Assembly: GCF_003385215.1 (NCBI RefSeq) | Contig: NZ_PQHW01000027.1 | Span: forward strand, 1 to 64,000 | Reading direction: 5' to 3' | Length of the DNA stretch: 64,000 nt | From: Amycolatopsis thermalba | Lineage (GTDB): Bacteria; Actinomycetota; Actinomycetes; Mycobacteriales; Pseudonocardiaceae | In this document: positions 37,145 to 43,380 of the stretch, piece by piece | Position numbering within the stretch: position 1 is the stretch's first letter | Layout: each line of letters opens with the position of its first letter | The notes under the pieces: model-generated | What the model saw: the letters and a program-made list of their open reading frames with translations, nothing else | Databases searched by the model: none | Told to the model about the DNA's origin: nothing | Position numbers and translations under genes: made by a program

Positions 37145-37741
37145 ATGAGCACGGTGATCAGCAGCCCCACCATCTCGGTCGACGGCTACCTGGCCGGTCC
37201 CCGCCAGAGCCGCGAGCTCGGGCTCGGCGAAGGCGGTGAGCGGCTGCACCGGTGGATGTTCGAAGCCGCGGAGGAGAACCGGGCCGAGCGCGACGCGATC
37301 CTCGGCCACGGCGCCTACATCATGGGACGCAACATGTTCGGCCCGATCCGCGGCGAGTGGGACGACCCCGGGTGGCACGGCTGGTGGGGTGACGAGCCGC
37401 CGTACCACGCGCCGGTCTTCGTGCTGACCCACTACCCGCGGGAGCCGATCGAGATGGCGGGCGGCACGACCTTCCACTTCGTCACCGACGGCATCGAGCC
37501 GGCGCTCGACCAGGCGCGTGCCGCCGCGGGTGAGCGGTCCGTGGCGATCATGGGCGGTGCGGCGACGATCGACCAGTACCTGGACGCCGGGCTGATCGAC
37601 GAGCTGCGGCTGACCATCGCGCCGACGGTGCTCGGCGACGGCGCCCGGCTCTTCGCCGGCGTGACCAGCCTGGACCTCGAACCCGTGTCGTCACGCACCA
37701 CCACGCTGGCCACCCACGTGACCTACCGCGTCCGGCGCTAG
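37145..37741 (+). CDS. Dihydrofolate-reductase-family (RibD C-terminal-like) protein
   Basis: 198 residues; ATG at 37145 after an AGGAGAG site. ISSPTISVDGYLAGP at the N-terminus, YIMGRNMFGPIRGEW, VFVLTHYPREPIEM, then VAIMGGAATIDQYLDAGLIDELRLTIAPTVLGDGARLF are the standard RibD_C/DHFR-fold motifs for NADPH binding. Family members reduce riboflavin precursors or drugs; most stand-alone actinobacterial copies have unknown substrates. Its stop overlaps the stop of the convergent PIG-L deacetylase gene by 4 bp. Confidence 0.87.
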   Translation: MSTVISSPTISVDGYLAGPRQSRELGLGEGGERLHRWMFEAAEENRAERDAILGHGAYIMGRNMFGPIRGEWDDPGWHGWWGDEPPYHAPVFVLTHYPREPIEMAGGTTFHFVTDGIEPALDQARAAAGERSVAIMGGAATIDQYLDAGLIDELRLTIAPTVLGDGARLFAGVTSLDLEPVSSRTTTLATHVTYRVRR

Positions 37742-38457
37742 ATCGGGAACAGCTCGAACGTGCAGGCCAGCGGCACCCCGAACGACTCGCCGGCCTGGGC
37801 GGCGAACTGGCGCAGGAACGGCTCCGGTTCGGCCATGTCACCGCCCAGCGCGGCCAGGTACGCCTTGTGCTCCCGCAGCGAAGCGACCGCCGCGTCGAAG
37901 GTGTCCGTGATGTCCACCGCGTGGGTCTGCACCGGCGAGCCGCACACGGCCACCCACCGCACGCCGCTCCACGGCTCCAGCCCGAGGTCGCGGAACAGCC
38001 AGCGGTTGGCCGCGTCCCGGACCGCGTCCAGCGTCGCCACGCCGACGTTGCGGTGGTCGGCCATGTTGTACCCGCCGCCGGGGAACGACTCGCGGTGGTT
38101 GAGCGTCACCACCAGCTCCGGGCGGTGCCGCCGGATCGCCGCCGCGATGTCCCGCCGCAACGGGATCCCGTTCTCGATCAGGCCGTCCGGGTGGTCCAGG
38201 AACTCGACCTCCTCGACCCCGACGACCCGGGCCGCGGCCAGCTGCTCCTGCGTCCGCAGTGGCCCGGCCTCCTCGGGCGGCAGGCTGTCGATCCCGGCCT
38301 CGCCCCGCGAGGCGAGCACGTACACCACCGACTTCCCCTGGCCCGTCCACCGGGCGATCGCCCCGGCCGCGCCGTACTCCAGGTCGTCCGGGTGCGCGAC
38401 CACCGCGAGCGCCCGGTTCCAGTCCTCCGGCATCGCGGCCGGTCTCGGGTCGGTCAT
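37738..38457 (-). CDS. PIG-L/LmbE-family deacetylase
   Basis: 239 residues. The zinc-binding AHPDD motif is at residues 21-25 (LAVVAHPDDLEYGAAG), with SRGEAGID, LDHPDGLIENG and a later His motif in NMADHRNVG. PIG-L enzymes remove N-acetyl groups from sugars; in actinobacteria relatives act in mycothiol synthesis (MshB), mycothiol conjugate cleavage (Mca) or antibiotic tailoring. This copy is shorter than MshB/Mca and its exact role is open. Divergent from bioF, with 45 bp between the starts. Confidence 0.87.
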   Translation of the reverse strand: MTDPRPAAMPEDWNRALAVVAHPDDLEYGAAGAIARWTGQGKSVVYVLASRGEAGIDSLPPEEAGPLRTQEQLAAARVVGVEEVEFLDHPDGLIENGIPLRRDIAAAIRRHRPELVVTLNHRESFPGGGYNMADHRNVGVATLDAVRDAANRWLFRDLGLEPWSGVRWVAVCGSPVQTHAVDITDTFDAAVASLREHKAYLAALGGDMAEPEPFLRQFAAQAGESFGVPLACTFELFPI

Positions 38458-38502: not shown

Positions 38503-39678
38503 GTGAACCTACCGGCTTCCTCCTCTCCAGAGCAGGTTTTCGACTGGCTCGACACCGCGGCCGAGAAGCGCGCGGCGGCCGGGCTGACCCGCCGGCTGCG
38601 GCCGCGGGGAGCCTCCTCGACCGAGCTGGACCTCGCCGGCAACGACTACCTCGGCCTGGCCCGCGACAAGCGCGTCGCCGGGGCCGCCGCGGCGGCCGCG
38701 CTCCGCTGGGGCGCCGGCGCGACCGGGTCGCGCCTGGGCACCGGCTCCACCGAGCTGCACACCGAGCTCGAATACGAGCTGGCCCGCTTCTGCGGCGCGC
38801 AGGCCGCGCTGGTGTTCTCCTCGGGTTTCACCGCCAACCTCGGCGCCGTCACCGCCCTGTCCGGGGCCGAATCCGCGATCGTCACCGACAAGTACGTGCA
38901 CACGTCGCTGATCGAGGGCTGCCGCCTGTCCCGCACCGACGTCGCGGCGATCAACCACTGCGATCCGGCGGCGATCAAGCACGCGCTCGCGACCCGCCGC
39001 AAACCGCGGGCGCTGGTGGTCACCGATTCGGTGTTCTCCGTCGACGGCGATCTCGCCCCGCTACGTGAGCTGTCCCAGGTCTGCCGCGAGCACGGCGCGG
39101 CGCTGCTGGTCGACGACGCGCATGGGTTCGGCGTGCTCGGCGAGGGCGGCCGCGGCGCGGTGCACGCGGCCGGGCTGGCGGGCGAGCCGGACGTGGTCAC
39201 CACGATCACCCTGTCCACGGCGCTCGGCGCGCAGGGCGGCGCCGTTCTCGGGCCGCGCCGGGTGATCCGGCACCTCGTGGAGACCGCGCGCAGCTTCATC
39301 TTCGACACCGGCCTCGCCCCGGCCAGCGCGGCCGCGGCACTGGCCGCGCTCGGGGTGCTCAAGTCCGAGCCTGGCCTGCCGGAGAAGGTCCTCACCAACG
39401 CGGTGACGCTGTCGAGCCGGCTGCGCGCGACCGGGTTCCGGGTGAGCAACCCGGAGGCGGCCGTGATCTCGGTTCAGGCGCCCTCCCCCGAGTCGGCCGC
39501 CGAATGGGCCGGCCGCTGCGCCGAGCAGGGGGTGCGGGTCGGCTGCTTCCGCCCGCCGTCGGTCCCGGACGGCGTCTCGCGGCTGCGCCTGACCGCCCGG
39601 GCCGACCTCACGGAGTCCGATGTGGACACCGCGGTGAAGGTGATCAGCGAGTCGGCGCCAGCCGGCGTCGCATCGTGA
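38503..39678 (+). CDS. bioF: 8-amino-7-oxononanoate synthase (BioF-like), PLP lysine replaced by Thr
   Basis: 391 residues from the GTG at 38503. The alpha-oxoamine synthase fold is complete: LDLAGNDYLGLARDKRV, GAGATGSRLGTGSTELHTELE, ALVFSSGFTANLGAV, ALLVDDAHGFGVLGEGGRG. BioF condenses pimeloyl-thioester with alanine using PLP. The PLP-lysine block, normally TLSKALGSQGG, reads ITLSTALGAQGG: codon 239 (39217-39219) is ACG, Thr, where AAG, Lys, is expected. No nearby Lys replaces it. Either this is an inactive paralogue or pseudo-enzyme, or there is a base error or recent mutation. The rest of the frame is intact. No other biotin genes are in the window. Confidence 0.85.
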   Translation: MNLPASSSPEQVFDWLDTAAEKRAAAGLTRRLRPRGASSTELDLAGNDYLGLARDKRVAGAAAAAALRWGAGATGSRLGTGSTELHTELEYELARFCGAQAALVFSSGFTANLGAVTALSGAESAIVTDKYVHTSLIEGCRLSRTDVAAINHCDPAAIKHALATRRKPRALVVTDSVFSVDGDLAPLRELSQVCREHGAALLVDDAHGFGVLGEGGRGAVHAAGLAGEPDVVTTITLSTALGAQGGAVLGPRRVIRHLVETARSFIFDTGLAPASAAAALAALGVLKSEPGLPEKVLTNAVTLSSRLRATGFRVSNPEAAVISVQAPSPESAAEWAGRCAEQGVRVGCFRPPSVPDGVSRLRLTARADLTESDVDTAVKVISESAPAGVAS

Positions 39679-40090
39679 TGTGCGGGATGCCGTCCTCGTC
39701 GAACTCGTCGCCCTCGGCGACGTAGCCGAACTTCTCGTAGAAGCCGCGCGCGTAGGTCTGCGCGTCGAGCACGCTGTCCGCGTCGCCGACCGAGATCAGC
39801 GCCGCGGTCATCAGGCGGGCGGCGAGCCCCTTGCCGCGGGCGTGCTTCGCGGTGACCACGCGGCCGATGCGCTGGACGCCGTCCCCGTCGTCGAGAACCC
39901 GGAGGTAGGACTCGATGCCGTCGGGGCCGTCGATCCAGAAGTGGCGGGTCGTCGGGTGCAGGTCACGCCCGTCCAGCTCGGGGTACGGGCAGTTCTGCTC
40001 CACGACGAACACCTCCACCCGGAGCCGGAGGATGTCGTACAGCTGCTGCGTGGTCAGGTCCGGTCCGCGGACGCCTCTGTCGGGGTTCAC
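39644..40090 (-). CDS. GNAT-family acetyltransferase (ElaA-like)
   Basis: 148 residues from a GTG at 40088-40090 with an AGGAG just upstream. The N-terminal LRLRVEVFVVEQNCPYPELDGRDLHPTTRHFWI is the ElaA-type opening (R-x-E-V-F-V-V-E-Q). The acetyl-CoA site is RVVTAKHARGKGLAARLMTAAL, and the end is FYEKFGYVAEGDEFDEDGIPHITM. Substrate unknown. It overlaps the bioF 3' end by 35 bp in opposite orientation, and the serine protease gene is next upstream in the same direction. Confidence 0.88.
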   Translation of the reverse strand: MNPDRGVRGPDLTTQQLYDILRLRVEVFVVEQNCPYPELDGRDLHPTTRHFWIDGPDGIESYLRVLDDGDGVQRIGRVVTAKHARGKGLAARLMTAALISVGDADSVLDAQTYARGFYEKFGYVAEGDEFDEDGIPHITMRRRLAPTR

Positions 40091-40100
40091 GGACTCCTGA

Positions 40101-40910
40101 CTACCAGAACACGACCCGCGACGACTCGGCTTCGCTGCGAATCTCGTTCACGTAGGTGATCACGCGGGTGTAGACGCCCGGTTTGCCCGGTTGCGCGCAG
40201 CCGTCGCCCCACGACACCAGCCCGATGAGCGTGTTGCCCACGACCAGCGGCCCGCCCGAGTCGCCCTGGCAGGCGTCCACCTTGCCCTCGGGGTAACCGG
40301 CGCAGACCATCGACCGGGAATCGTAGTTCGAGTAGCTGGCCCGGCAGCCGGAGTCGCTGATGACCGGCACCTCGGCCTTGCGCAGGACGTCCGAGCGCGC
40401 CCCGCCGTCGGAGGTGCGGCCCCAGCCCAGCACCGTCGCGCGGGTGCCCTCGGCGTAGAGCGAGTCGTCGCCGGGCAGGTTCACCGGCTGGTACGGCAGG
40501 CTCTGCGACAACTTGAGCACCGCGACGTCGTTCCCCTTGCCCGGGTCGGAGAACGAGTCCGGCATCCACACCTCGCGCACGGACACGGTCTTGCCCTCGT
40601 TGGTGCGCTTGTCCGTGCGGCCCGCCACGACCCGCAGGTCCGCCCGCTTCACGGCGCCGGCGCAGTGCGCCGCGGTGGCCACGGCGGTCGAGCTGACGAT
40701 GACCCCGCCGCAGAACTGGTTGCCGCTCTTGTCGGTCAGGTACACCGCGTACGGGTAGCTGCTGGTGGACGCCTCCGTACCGCCGACGATGTTCGGACGG
40801 GCGCCGGTGCTCGGCACGGCCGCGGCCACGGCCGCGGGGAACGCGGCGGCGGCGATGACCGCCGTCAGCGCCAGGCGGAACTTGCGGTCGCGTCGACGGT
40901 GCTTCGCCAT
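40101..40910 (-). CDS. Secreted trypsin-like serine protease (S1 family)
   Basis: 269 residues; AAAGGAG lies 8 bases before the ATG. A Sec signal peptide (MAKHRRRDRKFR then LALTAVIAAAAFPAAVAAA) precedes a short propeptide; the mature enzyme should begin at IVGG (residue 41). The catalytic triad is His82 (TAAHC), Asp128 (GNDVAV) and Ser218 (GDSGGP). Asp212, six residues before the Ser, predicts trypsin-like cleavage after Arg or Lys. Four to six Cys fit the usual disulfides. It would be exported as a zymogen and degrade extracellular protein. Divergent from an M15 lipoprotein gene. Confidence 0.93.
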   Translation of the reverse strand: MAKHRRRDRKFRLALTAVIAAAAFPAAVAAAVPSTGARPNIVGGTEASTSSYPYAVYLTDKSGNQFCGGVIVSSTAVATAAHCAGAVKRADLRVVAGRTDKRTNEGKTVSVREVWMPDSFSDPGKGNDVAVLKLSQSLPYQPVNLPGDDSLYAEGTRATVLGWGRTSDGGARSDVLRKAEVPVISDSGCRASYSNYDSRSMVCAGYPEGKVDACQGDSGGPLVVGNTLIGLVSWGDGCAQPGKPGVYTRVITYVNEIRSEAESSRVVFW

Positions 40911-41073
40911 GCGCGCGCTCCTTTCGGAAGAGCTCGATGAATCCCCCGGTGTCACACCCGATGGTCGAAAAACCGGCTTCGGGGCGTGAGATTGCCGCAC
41001 ATACAGTAATCGACAAGGGCCCGGAACCGGTGTCACTGAATCGGGTGGTATCCGGTTCTGCGAAGCTGGAGAC

Positions 41074-41922
41074 GTGCGAGGAATCGTGGCGCTCCTGCTG
41101 GCGCTCGGGCTCGTGGCGTGCGGCGCCCCACCCGAGCCGCCACCCGCACCCGTGCCCTCGCCCACGGTCCCGGCGACCACGACAACCACCACGACCCCTG
41201 CACCGCCGCCCACCACGTCCACGGCACCGGCCTGGACCGTCGGCGCCACCCCGCTGCCCCGCCGCCCGGACGGCTTCGGCGAGATCCGGCCGACCCCGGC
41301 CGTGCTGCGCGACCGCCGCCTCCCGACGACGGACCTGCTGCCGCCGCCCGCGGACGGCCGCTACGCCTCGACGGTGAGCGCGGTCCCGGCGGACGTGCTG
41401 ACGCGCAGCACCTGGCGGCCCGCGTGTCCGGCGGCCACGTCCGAGCTGCGCTACCTGACGATGTCGTTCTGGGGCTTCGACGGGAAGCCGCACACCGGTG
41501 AGATGCTCGTCGGCGCCTCGGTCGCGCGGGAGGTCACGCGCGTGTTCGGGCAGCTGTTCGCCGCGCGGTTCCCGATCGAGGAGATGCGGGTCACCTCGCC
41601 CGCCGAACTCGACGCTCCGCCGACCGGGGACGGCAACAACACCAGCGCGTTCGTCTGCCGCCCGGTGCGCGGCCAGACGAACTGGTCGGCGCACGCGTAC
41701 GGCCTGGCGATCGACCTGAACCCGTTCTGCAACCCCTACACCAAGGACGATCTGGTGCTGCCGGAACTCTCCTCGGCGTACCTGGACCGCTCGTGGGTGC
41801 GGCCGGGCATGGTGGAGGCCGGTGACGCGACGGTGCGGGCGTTCGCCGCGGCCGGCTGGAGCTGGGGCGGGGCCTGGCGGGAGCCGAAGGACCGGATGCA
41901 TTTCACCGCGACCGGCGGGTAG
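41074..41922 (+). CDS. M15-family D-alanyl-D-alanine carboxypeptidase-like lipoprotein
   Basis: 282 residues from a GTG after GGAG. Lipobox LVAC with Cys16 predicts a lipid anchor after signal peptidase II. Residues about 22-65 are a Pro/Thr linker. The C-terminal domain (about 110-282) shows the M15 zinc ligands in TNWSAHAYGLAIDLNPF (His and Asp) and KDRMHF (His), and the EEMRVTSP segment. It probably trims peptidoglycan peptides on the outer face of the membrane. Divergent from the trypsin-like protease gene. Confidence 0.87.
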   Translation: MRGIVALLLALGLVACGAPPEPPPAPVPSPTVPATTTTTTTPAPPPTTSTAPAWTVGATPLPRRPDGFGEIRPTPAVLRDRRLPTTDLLPPPADGRYASTVSAVPADVLTRSTWRPACPAATSELRYLTMSFWGFDGKPHTGEMLVGASVAREVTRVFGQLFAARFPIEEMRVTSPAELDAPPTGDGNNTSAFVCRPVRGQTNWSAHAYGLAIDLNPFCNPYTKDDLVLPELSSAYLDRSWVRPGMVEAGDATVRAFAAAGWSWGGAWREPKDRMHFTATGG

Positions 41923-41988: not shown

Positions 41989-43380
41989 GTGCCCCACTAC
42001 GACCTGGTGATCGTCGGAACCGGCTCGGGGAACTCGATCCTCGACCCCCGGTTCGCGGGCTGGAAGACGGCGATCGTGGAGAAGGGTGTGTTCGGCGGCA
42101 CGTGCCTGAACGTCGGGTGCATCCCGACCAAGATGTTCGTGCACGCCGCGGACGTGGCCGCGACCCCGTCGGTGTCCAGCCGGTTCGGCGTGGACGAGAC
42201 GCTGGACAAGGTGCGCTGGACCGACGTGCGCGACCGGATCTTCGGCCGCATCGACCCGATCGCCGAGGGCGGGCGCGAGTACCGGAAGAACCACGAGGAC
42301 AACGCCGGCGTCACCGTGTACGAGGGCCAGGGGCGGTTCACCGGGCACAAGGAGCTGACGGTGTCGTTCGCGGACGGGCGGCCGGACGAGGTCGTCACCG
42401 CGGACCGGTTCGTGCTCGCCGCGGGCGGGCGTCCGGTGGTGCCGGACCTGCCGGGCCTGGAGGACGTGCGCTACCACACCTCGGACACCGTGATGCGGCT
42501 CGACGTGCTGCCCGCGCGGATGGTCATCGTCGGCAGCGGGTTCATCGCGGCGGAGTTCGCGCACGTGTTCCGCTCGTTCGGGGTGGAGGTCACGATGGTG
42601 GCCCGGTCCGGCGCGTTGTTGCGCAGCGAGGACTTCGACCTCAGCAAGCGGTTCACGGAGCTGGCCGAGCGCCGGTTCGACGTGCGGCTCAACCGCAAGA
42701 CCGTGCGGGTGCGCCCGTCCGGGACGGGGGTCGCGCTGGAGCTGGAGGGCCCCGGCGGCGCGGAGACCGTCGAGGCGGACGAGCTGCTGATCGCGGTCGG
42801 GCGCCGGCCGAACACCGACCTGCTGGACGTGGCCGCGACGGGCGTGACCACGACCGAGAGCGGGCACGTGGTGGTCGACGACCACCAGGAAACGGTGGTC
42901 GAGGGGATCTACGCGCTGGGCGACATCTCGTCGCCGTACGAGCTGAAGCACGTCGCCAACCACGAGGCGCGGGTCGTGCAGCACAACCTGCTGAACCCGG
43001 ACTCGCCGATGACGGCCGACCACCGGTTCGTGCCGCACGCGGTGTTCACCTCGCCGCAGATCGCCTCGGTCGGCCTGACCGAGCAGGAGGCACGGGCGCG
43101 GGGCGTGGAGTACGTGACGTCCACACAGGACTACGCCGGCATCGCCTACGGCTGGGCGATGGAGGACACCAGCGGGTTCGCGAAGCTGCTGGCCGACCCG
43201 TCGACCGGGCAGCTGATCGGCGCGCACATCATCGGCCCGCAGGCGTCGACGGTGATCCAGCCGCTGATCCAGGCGATGAGCTTCGGCCTCGACGCGAAGT
43301 CCATGGCCCGCGGCCAGTACTGGATCCACCCGGCGATGCCCGAGCTGATCGAGAACGCGCTGCTGAACCTGCCGCTGTGA
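41989..43380 (+). CDS. mtr: Mycothione reductase
   Basis: 463 residues from a GTG with GGGAGG 9 bases away. The FAD motif VIVGTGSGNSI, the redox disulfide CLNVGC (Cys39 and Cys44), the NAD(P)H motif VIVGSGFIAAEFAHVF near 180, the second FAD block YALGDISSPYELKHVANHEAR, and the C-terminal catalytic HPAMPEL fit the flavoprotein disulfide reductases. The GTGSGNS N-terminus and length match mycothione reductase, which keeps mycothiol reduced for antioxidant defence in actinobacteria. Other mycothiol genes are not in the window. Confidence 0.92.
   Translation: MPHYDLVIVGTGSGNSILDPRFAGWKTAIVEKGVFGGTCLNVGCIPTKMFVHAADVAATPSVSSRFGVDETLDKVRWTDVRDRIFGRIDPIAEGGREYRKNHEDNAGVTVYEGQGRFTGHKELTVSFADGRPDEVVTADRFVLAAGGRPVVPDLPGLEDVRYHTSDTVMRLDVLPARMVIVGSGFIAAEFAHVFRSFGVEVTMVARSGALLRSEDFDLSKRFTELAERRFDVRLNRKTVRVRPSGTGVALELEGPGGAETVEADELLIAVGRRPNTDLLDVAATGVTTTESGHVVVDDHQETVVEGIYALGDISSPYELKHVANHEARVVQHNLLNPDSPMTADHRFVPHAVFTSPQIASVGLTEQEARARGVEYVTSTQDYAGIAYGWAMEDTSGFAKLLADPSTGQLIGAHIIGPQASTVIQPLIQAMSFGLDAKSMARGQYWIHPAMPELIENALLNLPL

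What the first reader, a model, noticed from the sequence alone, without database searches (positions are those of the whole stretch)
39211..39228. BioF-like enzyme with Thr in place of the PLP lysine
Seen: the PLP block reads TLSTALGAQGG; codon 239 is ACG where AAG would give the Lys of TLSKALG. All other motifs look intact. Known: alpha-oxoamine synthases form an internal aldimine with this Lys and lose activity without it. One base (A to C) explains the change.
Basis: partly seen in the sequence, partly recalled or inferred. Interest (0 to 1): 0.62.

Follow-up and report, generated by a model that had tools for sequence, protein, structure and literature searches.

The report
Conserved vitamin enzyme lacking catalytic lysine
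A biotin-making enzyme in a family of soil bacteria has lost its essential catalytic lysine at least four or five separate times, in the genomes read only where another gene set can make biotin or much of the pathway is gone, yet natural selection still guards the rest of the protein, which suggests it has a second, unknown job.

Summary
Window ORF 38503-39678 (+) is a BioF-type protein with Thr (ACG, 39217-39219) at the PLP-lysine position. It is not a lone mutation: the 96%-identical relative has Ala, and of 182 family genomes read, 22 lack the Lys (Thr, Ala, His, Asn or Gly). A tree needs five changes, at least four by well-supported branches.

Of the 22, 17 (the window genome included) carry another, Lys-bearing bioF; five lack bioA plus bioB and/or bioD. 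Yet the Lys-less genes stay conserved: dN/dS 0.05-0.06 in three of five lineages, 0.07 and 0.11 in the others, against 0.04-0.05 for Lys-bearing background. Neutrality is rejected for the window's branch. Of 27 tested genomes with the extra copy, 21 have lost the ancestral bioB; all 27 still have this bioF (one in pieces). In older lineages more of the PLP site erodes, after a burst of change.

Best reading: a former 8-amino-7-oxononanoate synthase repeatedly turned into a retained pseudoenzyme with a Lys-independent, probably biotin-independent role, still unknown. LCB1 of serine palmitoyltransferase is the nearest parallel, but four Lys-less genomes have no other BioF as partner.

The parts
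38503..39678 (+). bioF-type gene (type 1), 391 aa, GTG start; alpha-oxoamine synthase fold, PLP lysine absent
   Evidence: (TIGR00858, 388 bits)
39217..39219 (+). codon 239, ACG (Thr), at the position of E. coli AONS Lys236
39208..39240 (+). PLP-lysine block TLSTALGAQGG
38899..38901 (+). His133 codon (E. coli His133; equivalent to the PLP-stacking His159 of SPT), kept here; Gln/Asn in genus g27
39112..39123 (+). Asp204 to His207 (PLP ring contacts, role recalled), kept here; Asp204 is Asn in 8 of the 10 Lys-less g11 genes
39550..39552 (+). Arg350 codon (E. coli Arg349), kept here; Gln in G008/G018, Cys/Thr in g27
37738..38457 (-). PIG-L family deacetylase gene, divergent neighbour (45 bp gap); conserved beside bioF in many but not all loci read; functional link not shown
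39644..40090 (-). GNAT acetyltransferase gene, convergent neighbour overlapping the bioF 3' end by 35 bp; found beside bioF in most loci read, not in the four of g27 type

Best explanation
The window gene is the vertically inherited, stand-alone bioF of this actinobacterial family. In three relatives checked that have only this copy (G002, G003, G007) it carries the Lys and is the only bioF-profile hit, so there it is presumably the working AONS. In the window's lineage a second bioB-bioA-bioF operon with a Lys-bearing BioF took over biotin synthesis; the ancestral bioA and bioB were lost. The old BioF lost its PLP lysine but was kept, as a folded, selected protein. I infer that it now acts as a pseudoenzyme, through binding (a protein partner or a small ligand) rather than AONS catalysis. 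The same happened independently in other lineages, also in genomes that lack several biotin genes, so its retained job is Lys-independent and most likely biotin-independent. Shown: the missing Lys, recurrence, another BioF or missing pathway genes, purifying selection, erosion of the PLP site in other lineages. Inferred: loss of AONS activity, order of events, non-catalytic role, nature of the role.
For: 22 of 182 genomes read lack the Lys; a tree of 97 genes needs 5 changes, at least 4 forced by starred branches. Of the 22, 17 have another BioF (49-60% identical to the window protein) with Lys, and 5 lack bioA over the cut-off and also bioB and/or bioD. dN/dS 0.060 and 0.052 within two Lys-less clades against 0.045-0.050 in three Lys-bearing sets; window tip 0.060 (against 1: 2dlnL 46.3), Thr/Ala clade 0.054 (2dlnL 124.6). 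Stem then crown: g27 0.257 then 0.054; g11 clade 0.138 then 0.051. In all 27 genomes with the extra copy that were tested for bioB the type-1 bioF is still present (one in pieces), while the ancestral bioB is gone in 21. Within genera g1, g11 and g27 all 106 genomes have a type-1 match. Other reading frames give higher dN/dS. Both predicted models have the AONS fold.
Against: No expression, protein or phenotype data. No partner, ligand or conserved neighbour points to a role: PIG-L is not beside it in the three g11-type loci read, GNAT not in the four g27-type loci. The His clade (G008/G018) has dN/dS 0.112, twice background, which fits some relaxation. G259's copy is frameshifted. 18 of 390 genomes, some 99% complete, have no match at 1e-60, and many genera whose best match is weaker were not checked for a type-1 gene, so it can be absent elsewhere. 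13 of 30 genomes with the extra copy keep the Lys, and so does G014, which lacks bioA and bioB over the cut-off. In the window's protein the other catalytic residues are kept, so PLP binding or residual chemistry is not excluded. If the window's loss is recent on its tip, its dN/dS is partly pre-loss.
Confidence: 0.68

Rival explanations
1. LCB1-like subunit: the Lys-less BioF forms a heterodimer with the Lys-bearing type-2 BioF (or another alpha-oxoamine synthase) and supports it structurally, as SPT1/LCB1 does for SPT2/LCB2.
For: Same superfamily precedent: SPT1 lacks the Lys and forms a heterodimer with SPT2 (PMC6148460, passages). 17 of 22 Lys-less genomes have a Lys-bearing BioF of 49-60% identity.
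Against: In four Lys-less genomes (G253, G257, G259, G260) the bioF profile finds no other hit at 1e-40, and G256 has only about 40% identical BioF-like genes, so a BioF partner cannot be the general reason for retention. A partner from another branch of the superfamily was not excluded.
Confidence: 0.13
2. Enzyme with altered chemistry: PLP (or PMP) bound without a Schiff base, or a PLP-free acyltransferase or thioesterase reaction in the old pocket.
For: In the window and G006 the other PLP-site residues checked are kept. SPT K265A still holds a PLP aldimine in a crystal (title of 4bmk). Some sugar dehydratases use His in place of Lys (recalled).
Against: Five different residues replace Lys, more than one even within single clades. 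Other PLP-site residues are later lost in some lineages (Asp204Asn, His133Gln/Asn, Arg350Cys/Thr/Gln), so no one chemistry is conserved.
Confidence: 0.12
3. Redundant gene in decay: catalysis was released and the gene is a young pseudogene on its way out.
For: Losses seen only where the enzyme is redundant or several pathway genes are missing; chosen active-site residues change more than other invariant ones in g27 and over all Lys-less rows; one frameshifted copy (G259); His clade dN/dS doubled.
Against: dN/dS close to that of Lys-bearing copies inside two whole Lys-less clades; neutrality rejected on the window branch; the gene stays in 27 of 27 tested genomes with the extra copy while ancestral bioB is gone in 21.
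Confidence: 0.06
4. Assembly or sequencing error at one base in the window.
For: Draft genome of 222 contigs; one base separates ACG from AAG.
Against: Ala at the same site in the 96% identical relative; 22 of 182 genomes affected.
Confidence: 0.01

Closest known systems
8-amino-7-oxononanoate synthase (BioF, AONS), e.g. Mycobacterium smegmatis BioF 3wy7/7s5m and E. coli BioF 1bs0/1dje
   Same: About 55-57% identical to 3wy7/7s5m, same predicted fold (TM normalised by query 0.83-0.91); the other catalytic positions checked are kept in the window protein.
   Different: Lacks the PLP lysine; stands alone while Lys-bearing BioF copies sit beside bioA and bioB elsewhere in the same genome.
SPT1/LCB1, the Lys-less subunit of eukaryotic serine palmitoyltransferase
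   Same: Alpha-oxoamine synthase that lost the PLP lysine and is retained (PMC6148460, passages).
   Different: LCB1 works with LCB2; here four genomes have no other bioF-profile hit, the losses are recurrent and the replacing residue varies. Foldseek ranks a chain of the human SPT complex (7k0m_A) well below AONS.
Rv3778c of M. tuberculosis, noncatalytic relative of cysteine desulfurases
   Same: Relative of PLP enzymes that lacks the conserved Lys, called expressed and likely noncatalytic (PMC12910592, passages).
   Different: Different family; no recurrent loss is described in the passages read.
S. cerevisiae Alt2, alanine transaminase paralogue that lost its activity
   Same: PLP-enzyme paralogue retained after loss of the ancestral role (PMC5960717, search listing only).
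   Different: Not an alpha-oxoamine synthase; I did not read whether its Lys is kept.

Membership tests
8-amino-7-oxononanoate synthase (AONS/BioF) | Alpha-oxoamine synthase fold and full-length sequence homology | tested here: met
   Best PDB hits are BioF (3wy7, 7s5m) by sequence and by model; TIGR00858 covers 39-381.
8-amino-7-oxononanoate synthase (AONS/BioF) | Score over the curated TIGR00858 cut-off | tested here: inconclusive
   388.3 bits against 426.45, but none of 44 family genomes examined, Lys-bearing ones included, has a hit over it (0 of 35, 0 of 9).
8-amino-7-oxononanoate synthase (AONS/BioF) | PLP-binding catalytic lysine | tested here: not met
   Thr239.
8-amino-7-oxononanoate synthase (AONS/BioF) | Other PLP-site residues (E. 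coli His133, Asp204, His207, Arg349, Ser179, Asn47; roles partly recalled) | tested here: met
   All kept in the window protein; several not in g27 or the g11 Asn clade.
8-amino-7-oxononanoate synthase (AONS/BioF) | Makes 8-amino-7-oxononanoate | not testable with these tools
   Needs assay or complementation.
Pseudoenzyme of the alpha-oxoamine synthase family | Catalytic motif absent in the sequence | tested here: met
Pseudoenzyme of the alpha-oxoamine synthase family | Retained by selection as a protein | tested here: met
   dN/dS about 0.05 inside two Lys-less clades and on the window's clade, neutrality rejected; other frames as control. His clade 0.112.
Pseudoenzyme of the alpha-oxoamine synthase family | No catalytic activity | not testable with these tools
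   Needs biochemistry.
LCB1-type partner subunit | A Lys-bearing partner of the BioF type is always present | tested here: not met
   G253, G257, G259 and G260 have no other bioF-profile hit at 1e-40; more distant members of the superfamily were not examined as partners.
LCB1-type partner subunit | Physical heterodimer | not testable with these tools
   No complex prediction or binding data.

The most novel reading that the evidence does not exclude
BioF of this actinobacterial family has always had two jobs. Besides making 8-amino-7-oxononanoate it does something that needs its fold but neither its lysine nor, in the end, PLP. When another operon takes over biotin synthesis, or biotin synthesis is lost, catalysis can be shed and the hidden second job is exposed. 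This has happened at least four or five times by loss of the Lys, and perhaps twice more by other active-site residues while Lys is kept (G001 Asn47Glu with Gly108Glu; G014 His133Gly).
Probability: 0.38. Interest if true: 0.77.

Novelty: new variant of a known kind. Interest (0 to 1): 0.62.

Why it matters
An enzyme freed of its job is commonly deleted in bacteria. Here one vitamin-biosynthesis enzyme repeatedly loses its catalytic lysine yet is kept under near-normal purifying selection, often while pathway neighbours disappear. That makes a set of natural, probably catalytic-dead mutants, with sister species as controls, in which a hidden second function of a textbook enzyme can be sought. 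It also warns that annotation by homology ('8-amino-7-oxononanoate synthase') probably mispredicts biotin synthesis for these genes, and that metabolic models built on it may be wrong for the genomes that have no other BioF.

Tried and rejected
Sequencing error or private mutation: rejected by the relatives.

Misalignment: rejected, no gap and no nearby Lys. One row (L029, a 37% homologue) reads 'A' only because the alignment slips by a few residues (GTLGKALGG); it was not counted.

Antisense or other overlapping gene as the cause of the constraint: a long antisense ORF (38646-39449, -) exists, but its frame has dN/dS 0.10-0.11 against 0.05-0.06 in the sense frame, in two Lys-less sets and one Lys-bearing set alike.

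Genome neighbourhood as a clue to function: PIG-L and GNAT are frequent neighbours, but not in all of the 14 loci compared with the window; no functional link claimed.

'Lys is always lost first': dropped. G001 and G014 keep Lys but have changed Asn47/Gly108 or His133/Asn47. G001 has the second operon; G014 has no bioA or bioB over the cut-off.

Ancestral bioB as a control: my first wording (21 of 21) counted only the genomes where bioB was displaced. The full count is 21 of 27 tested genomes with the extra copy; G104, G108, G123, G133, G161 and G328 keep a bioB away from the extra bioF. In G161 no bioB lies beside the extra bioF.

Active-site enrichment of changes: for g27 6 of 9 chosen residues against 31 of 152 others (p 0.005), for all Lys-less rows together 7 of 9 against 48 of 152 (p 0.008), for the g11 clade 4 of 9 against 23 of 152 (p 0.044); not significant for the His clade (p 0.38), G260 (p 0.25), or G001 with G014 (p 0.07); the Thr/Ala pair has no such change. 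The nine residues were chosen by me from the family's known chemistry (recalled); Lys itself was left out.

First codon-model runs failed on a thread setting and were repeated; the dN/dS values were not captured and were read from the logs.

Literature on Lys-less BioF: seven searches showed nothing on it in the rows listed; listed were 15 of 185, 15 of 25, 3 of 3, 12 of 1,381 (swamped by 'biofilm'), 20 of 156, 10 of 10 and 0 of 0. The library holds open-licence papers only.

Full report
OBSERVATION. The ORF at 38503-39678 (+) encodes 391 aa. Its best NCBIfam profile is TIGR00858 bioF (388 bits, below the curated 426); its best solved relatives are M. smegmatis BioF (3wy7, 7s5m). The PLP block reads TLSTALGAQGG; Thr239 (ACG, 39217-39219) sits where E. 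coli BioF has Lys236. The predicted structure (mean pLDDT 92.4) matches 7s5m and 3wy7. Of 162 positions at least 98% invariant among 158 Lys-bearing rows, the window protein differs only at 239.

IT IS RECURRENT. All 19 genomes of the window's genus have an orthologue: 15 with Lys, window (G000) Thr, G006 Ala, G008 and G018 His. With 30 genomes read, 33 new ones and 100, I read the site in 182 of 390 family genomes; 372 of the 390 have a match at 1e-60. The 182 include nine g7 genes of 57-59% identity whose orthology I did not check, and two genes read in part (G024, G133); all of these have Lys. 22 of 182 lack Lys: G000 T, G006 A, G008 and G018 H; in genus g11 G123 T, eight N, G138 H; all seven of genus g27 G (one, G259, frameshifted); G260 of g28 T. 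Among 80 loci of named genomes 79 have Lys and one (L042, Prauserella isguenensis, identical to G256's gene in the tree) has Gly. Before the alignment, 11 of 191 loci were left out by an identity and coverage filter (the nine g7 genes, G024 and G133); G259 was not entered. Synteny was compared in 14 loci: the DEAD-box helicase gene with PIG-L and/or GNAT lies at the same place in three g1, two g11, three g27 and four of six named loci; the other two named loci share PIG-L and GNAT, or GNAT alone. G260's surroundings were not examined. A tree of 97 genes with the site's codon left out needs five changes of the label, at least four forced by starred branches (quick method, SH-aLRT only). The tree does not give direction; I take loss because Lys is near-universal outside.

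WHERE LYS IS LOST. The additional bioF copies are 49-60% identical to the window protein and carry Lys wherever read. They lie within a few kb of a bioB in the genomes compared, except G161; bioA lies between them in the g1 and g27 cases tested (G000, G006, G008, G009, G018, G254, G255, G258) but not in G118 or G123. 30 of the 182 genomes have such a copy (9 in g1, 17 in g11, 3 in g27, and G328, whose copy has stops); 17 of the 30 have a Lys-less type-1 gene. Of the other 152, five are Lys-less: G253, G256, G257, G259, G260. All five lack bioA over the cut-off; G253, G256, G257 and G259 lack bioD, and G257 has no bioB over the cut-off; G260 lacks bioB while its three congeners have it (bioD not tested in G260). 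G259 is only 91% complete. G256 has two further bioF-profile hits, one about 40% identical. Against a simple rule: 13 of the 30 with an extra copy still have Lys, and G014, which lacks bioA and bioB over the cut-off, also keeps it. Pathway completeness was not tested in most single-copy Lys-bearing genomes. In single-copy G002, G003 and G007 the type-1 gene is the only bioF-profile hit at 1e-40, and bioD and bioB lie together elsewhere.

THE WINDOW'S GENOME. G000 has two bioB-bioA-bioF sets, on contigs C2 and C1; both BioF keep Lys; bioA on C2 has an in-frame stop, bioA on C1 has none. bioD lies on C208. No other bioA or bioB over the cut-off was found.

SELECTION. With IQ-TREE (GY+F3X4), dN/dS is 0.060 in six g27 genes and 0.052 in nine g11 genes of the Asn/His group (all branches after the loss, if the loss is ancestral to the clade), 0.079 for the four Lys-less g1 genes (which includes branches before the losses), and 0.048, 0.050, 0.045 in three Lys-bearing sets. 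My own branch model in g1 gives background 0.053, Thr/Ala clade 0.055, His clade 0.112; window tip alone 0.060 (against 1: 2dlnL 46.3), Thr/Ala clade 0.054 (against 1: 124.6); His clade against one ratio 2dlnL 9.0, its tips 0.143, so somewhat relaxed. G260 tip 0.073; g27 stem 0.257, crown 0.054, background 0.049. For the g11 clade the stem is 0.138, crown 0.051, background 0.043. Trees were fixed by me, saturation at third positions is likely, and equal codon frequencies across genomes are assumed. Other frames of the same alignments give higher values.

EROSION OF THE SITE. Lys-less genes form a series: window and G006 differ only at 239; G008/G018 also have Arg350Gln; G123 and G260 also Asn47Asp; eight g11 genes also Asp204Asn; g27 has lost His133, Ser179, Gly108, Arg350 and more (24 invariant positions, Lys included, changed in all six members aligned) but keeps Asp204, His207 and Arg362. 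The g27-type model still has the AONS fold (pLDDT 89.5, best hit 7s5m). Roles of these residues follow the SPT review PMC6148460 (passages: Lys265, His159, His234, Asp231, Arg378/390) and my recall of AONS numbering.

CONTROL FROM THE PATHWAY. 27 genomes with the extra copy were tested for bioB. In 21 (nine g1, nine g11 of the Asn/His group, three g27) the only bioB over the cut-off is beside the extra bioF (two such in G000), so the ancestral bioB is gone; six (G104, G108, G123, G133, G161, G328) keep one elsewhere. The type-1 bioF is present in all 27, in pieces in G133. Within g1 (19), g11 (80) and g27 (7) every genome has a type-1 match. Other genera with weaker best matches were not checked for the type-1 gene, so I cannot say how often it is lost there.

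READING. Catalysis by alpha-oxoamine synthases uses this Lys for the internal aldimine and for deprotonation (PMC11906848, passages), so loss of AONS activity is the expected result (not assayed). The protein is nevertheless selected, in genomes with and without another BioF. I conclude that it has become a retained pseudoenzyme with a Lys-independent role. The role itself is unknown; binding of a partner or ligand is my guess. That the role pre-dates the loss (a moonlighting ancestor) is the boldest reading and would explain repeated retention; it is not shown.

PRIOR ART. Lys-less relatives of PLP enzymes are known: SPT1/LCB1 (PMC6148460, passages), Rv3778c (PMC12910592, passages). I saw nothing on Lys-less BioF in the listings of searches of an open-licence library, several of which list only part of their hits. 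Hence: new variant of a known kind.

Noticed in passing
G000 contigs C2:28132-31498 and C1:109867-113209 (L201, L202): The window's genome holds two bioB-bioA-bioF sets, each with a divergent gene of similar N-terminal sequence beside it (TetR family by Pfam for the C2 one); bioA of the C2 set carries an in-frame stop.
   Followed up: partly
L018 (G001) and L019 (G014): Two Lys-bearing type-1 BioF genes have other active-site changes (Asn47Glu with Gly108Glu; His133Gly with Asn47Asp), in a genome with a second operon and in one without bioA or bioB over the cut-off.
   Followed up: partly
L150, L152-L156 (genus g27): A long, fast stem (dN/dS 0.257) precedes a strongly constrained crown (0.054), with 24 formerly invariant positions changed in all six aligned members.
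   Followed up: partly
window residue 47 and equivalents: Asn47Asp recurs in g27, G260, G123, three genes of the Asn clade and G014.
   Followed up: no
window 39644-39678: The bioF 3' end and the convergent GNAT gene overlap by 35 bp; PIG-L (37738-38457) starts 45 bp from the bioF start on the other strand.
   Followed up: no
window 40101-41922: A trypsin-like gene (-) and an M15 peptidase gene (+) overlap at their listed 5' ends, so the longest start of one of them is probably wrong.
   Followed up: no
window 41989-43380: Mycothione reductase gene (TIGR03452 over its cut-off), in conserved synteny with the locus in several g1 and g11-type loci.
   Followed up: no
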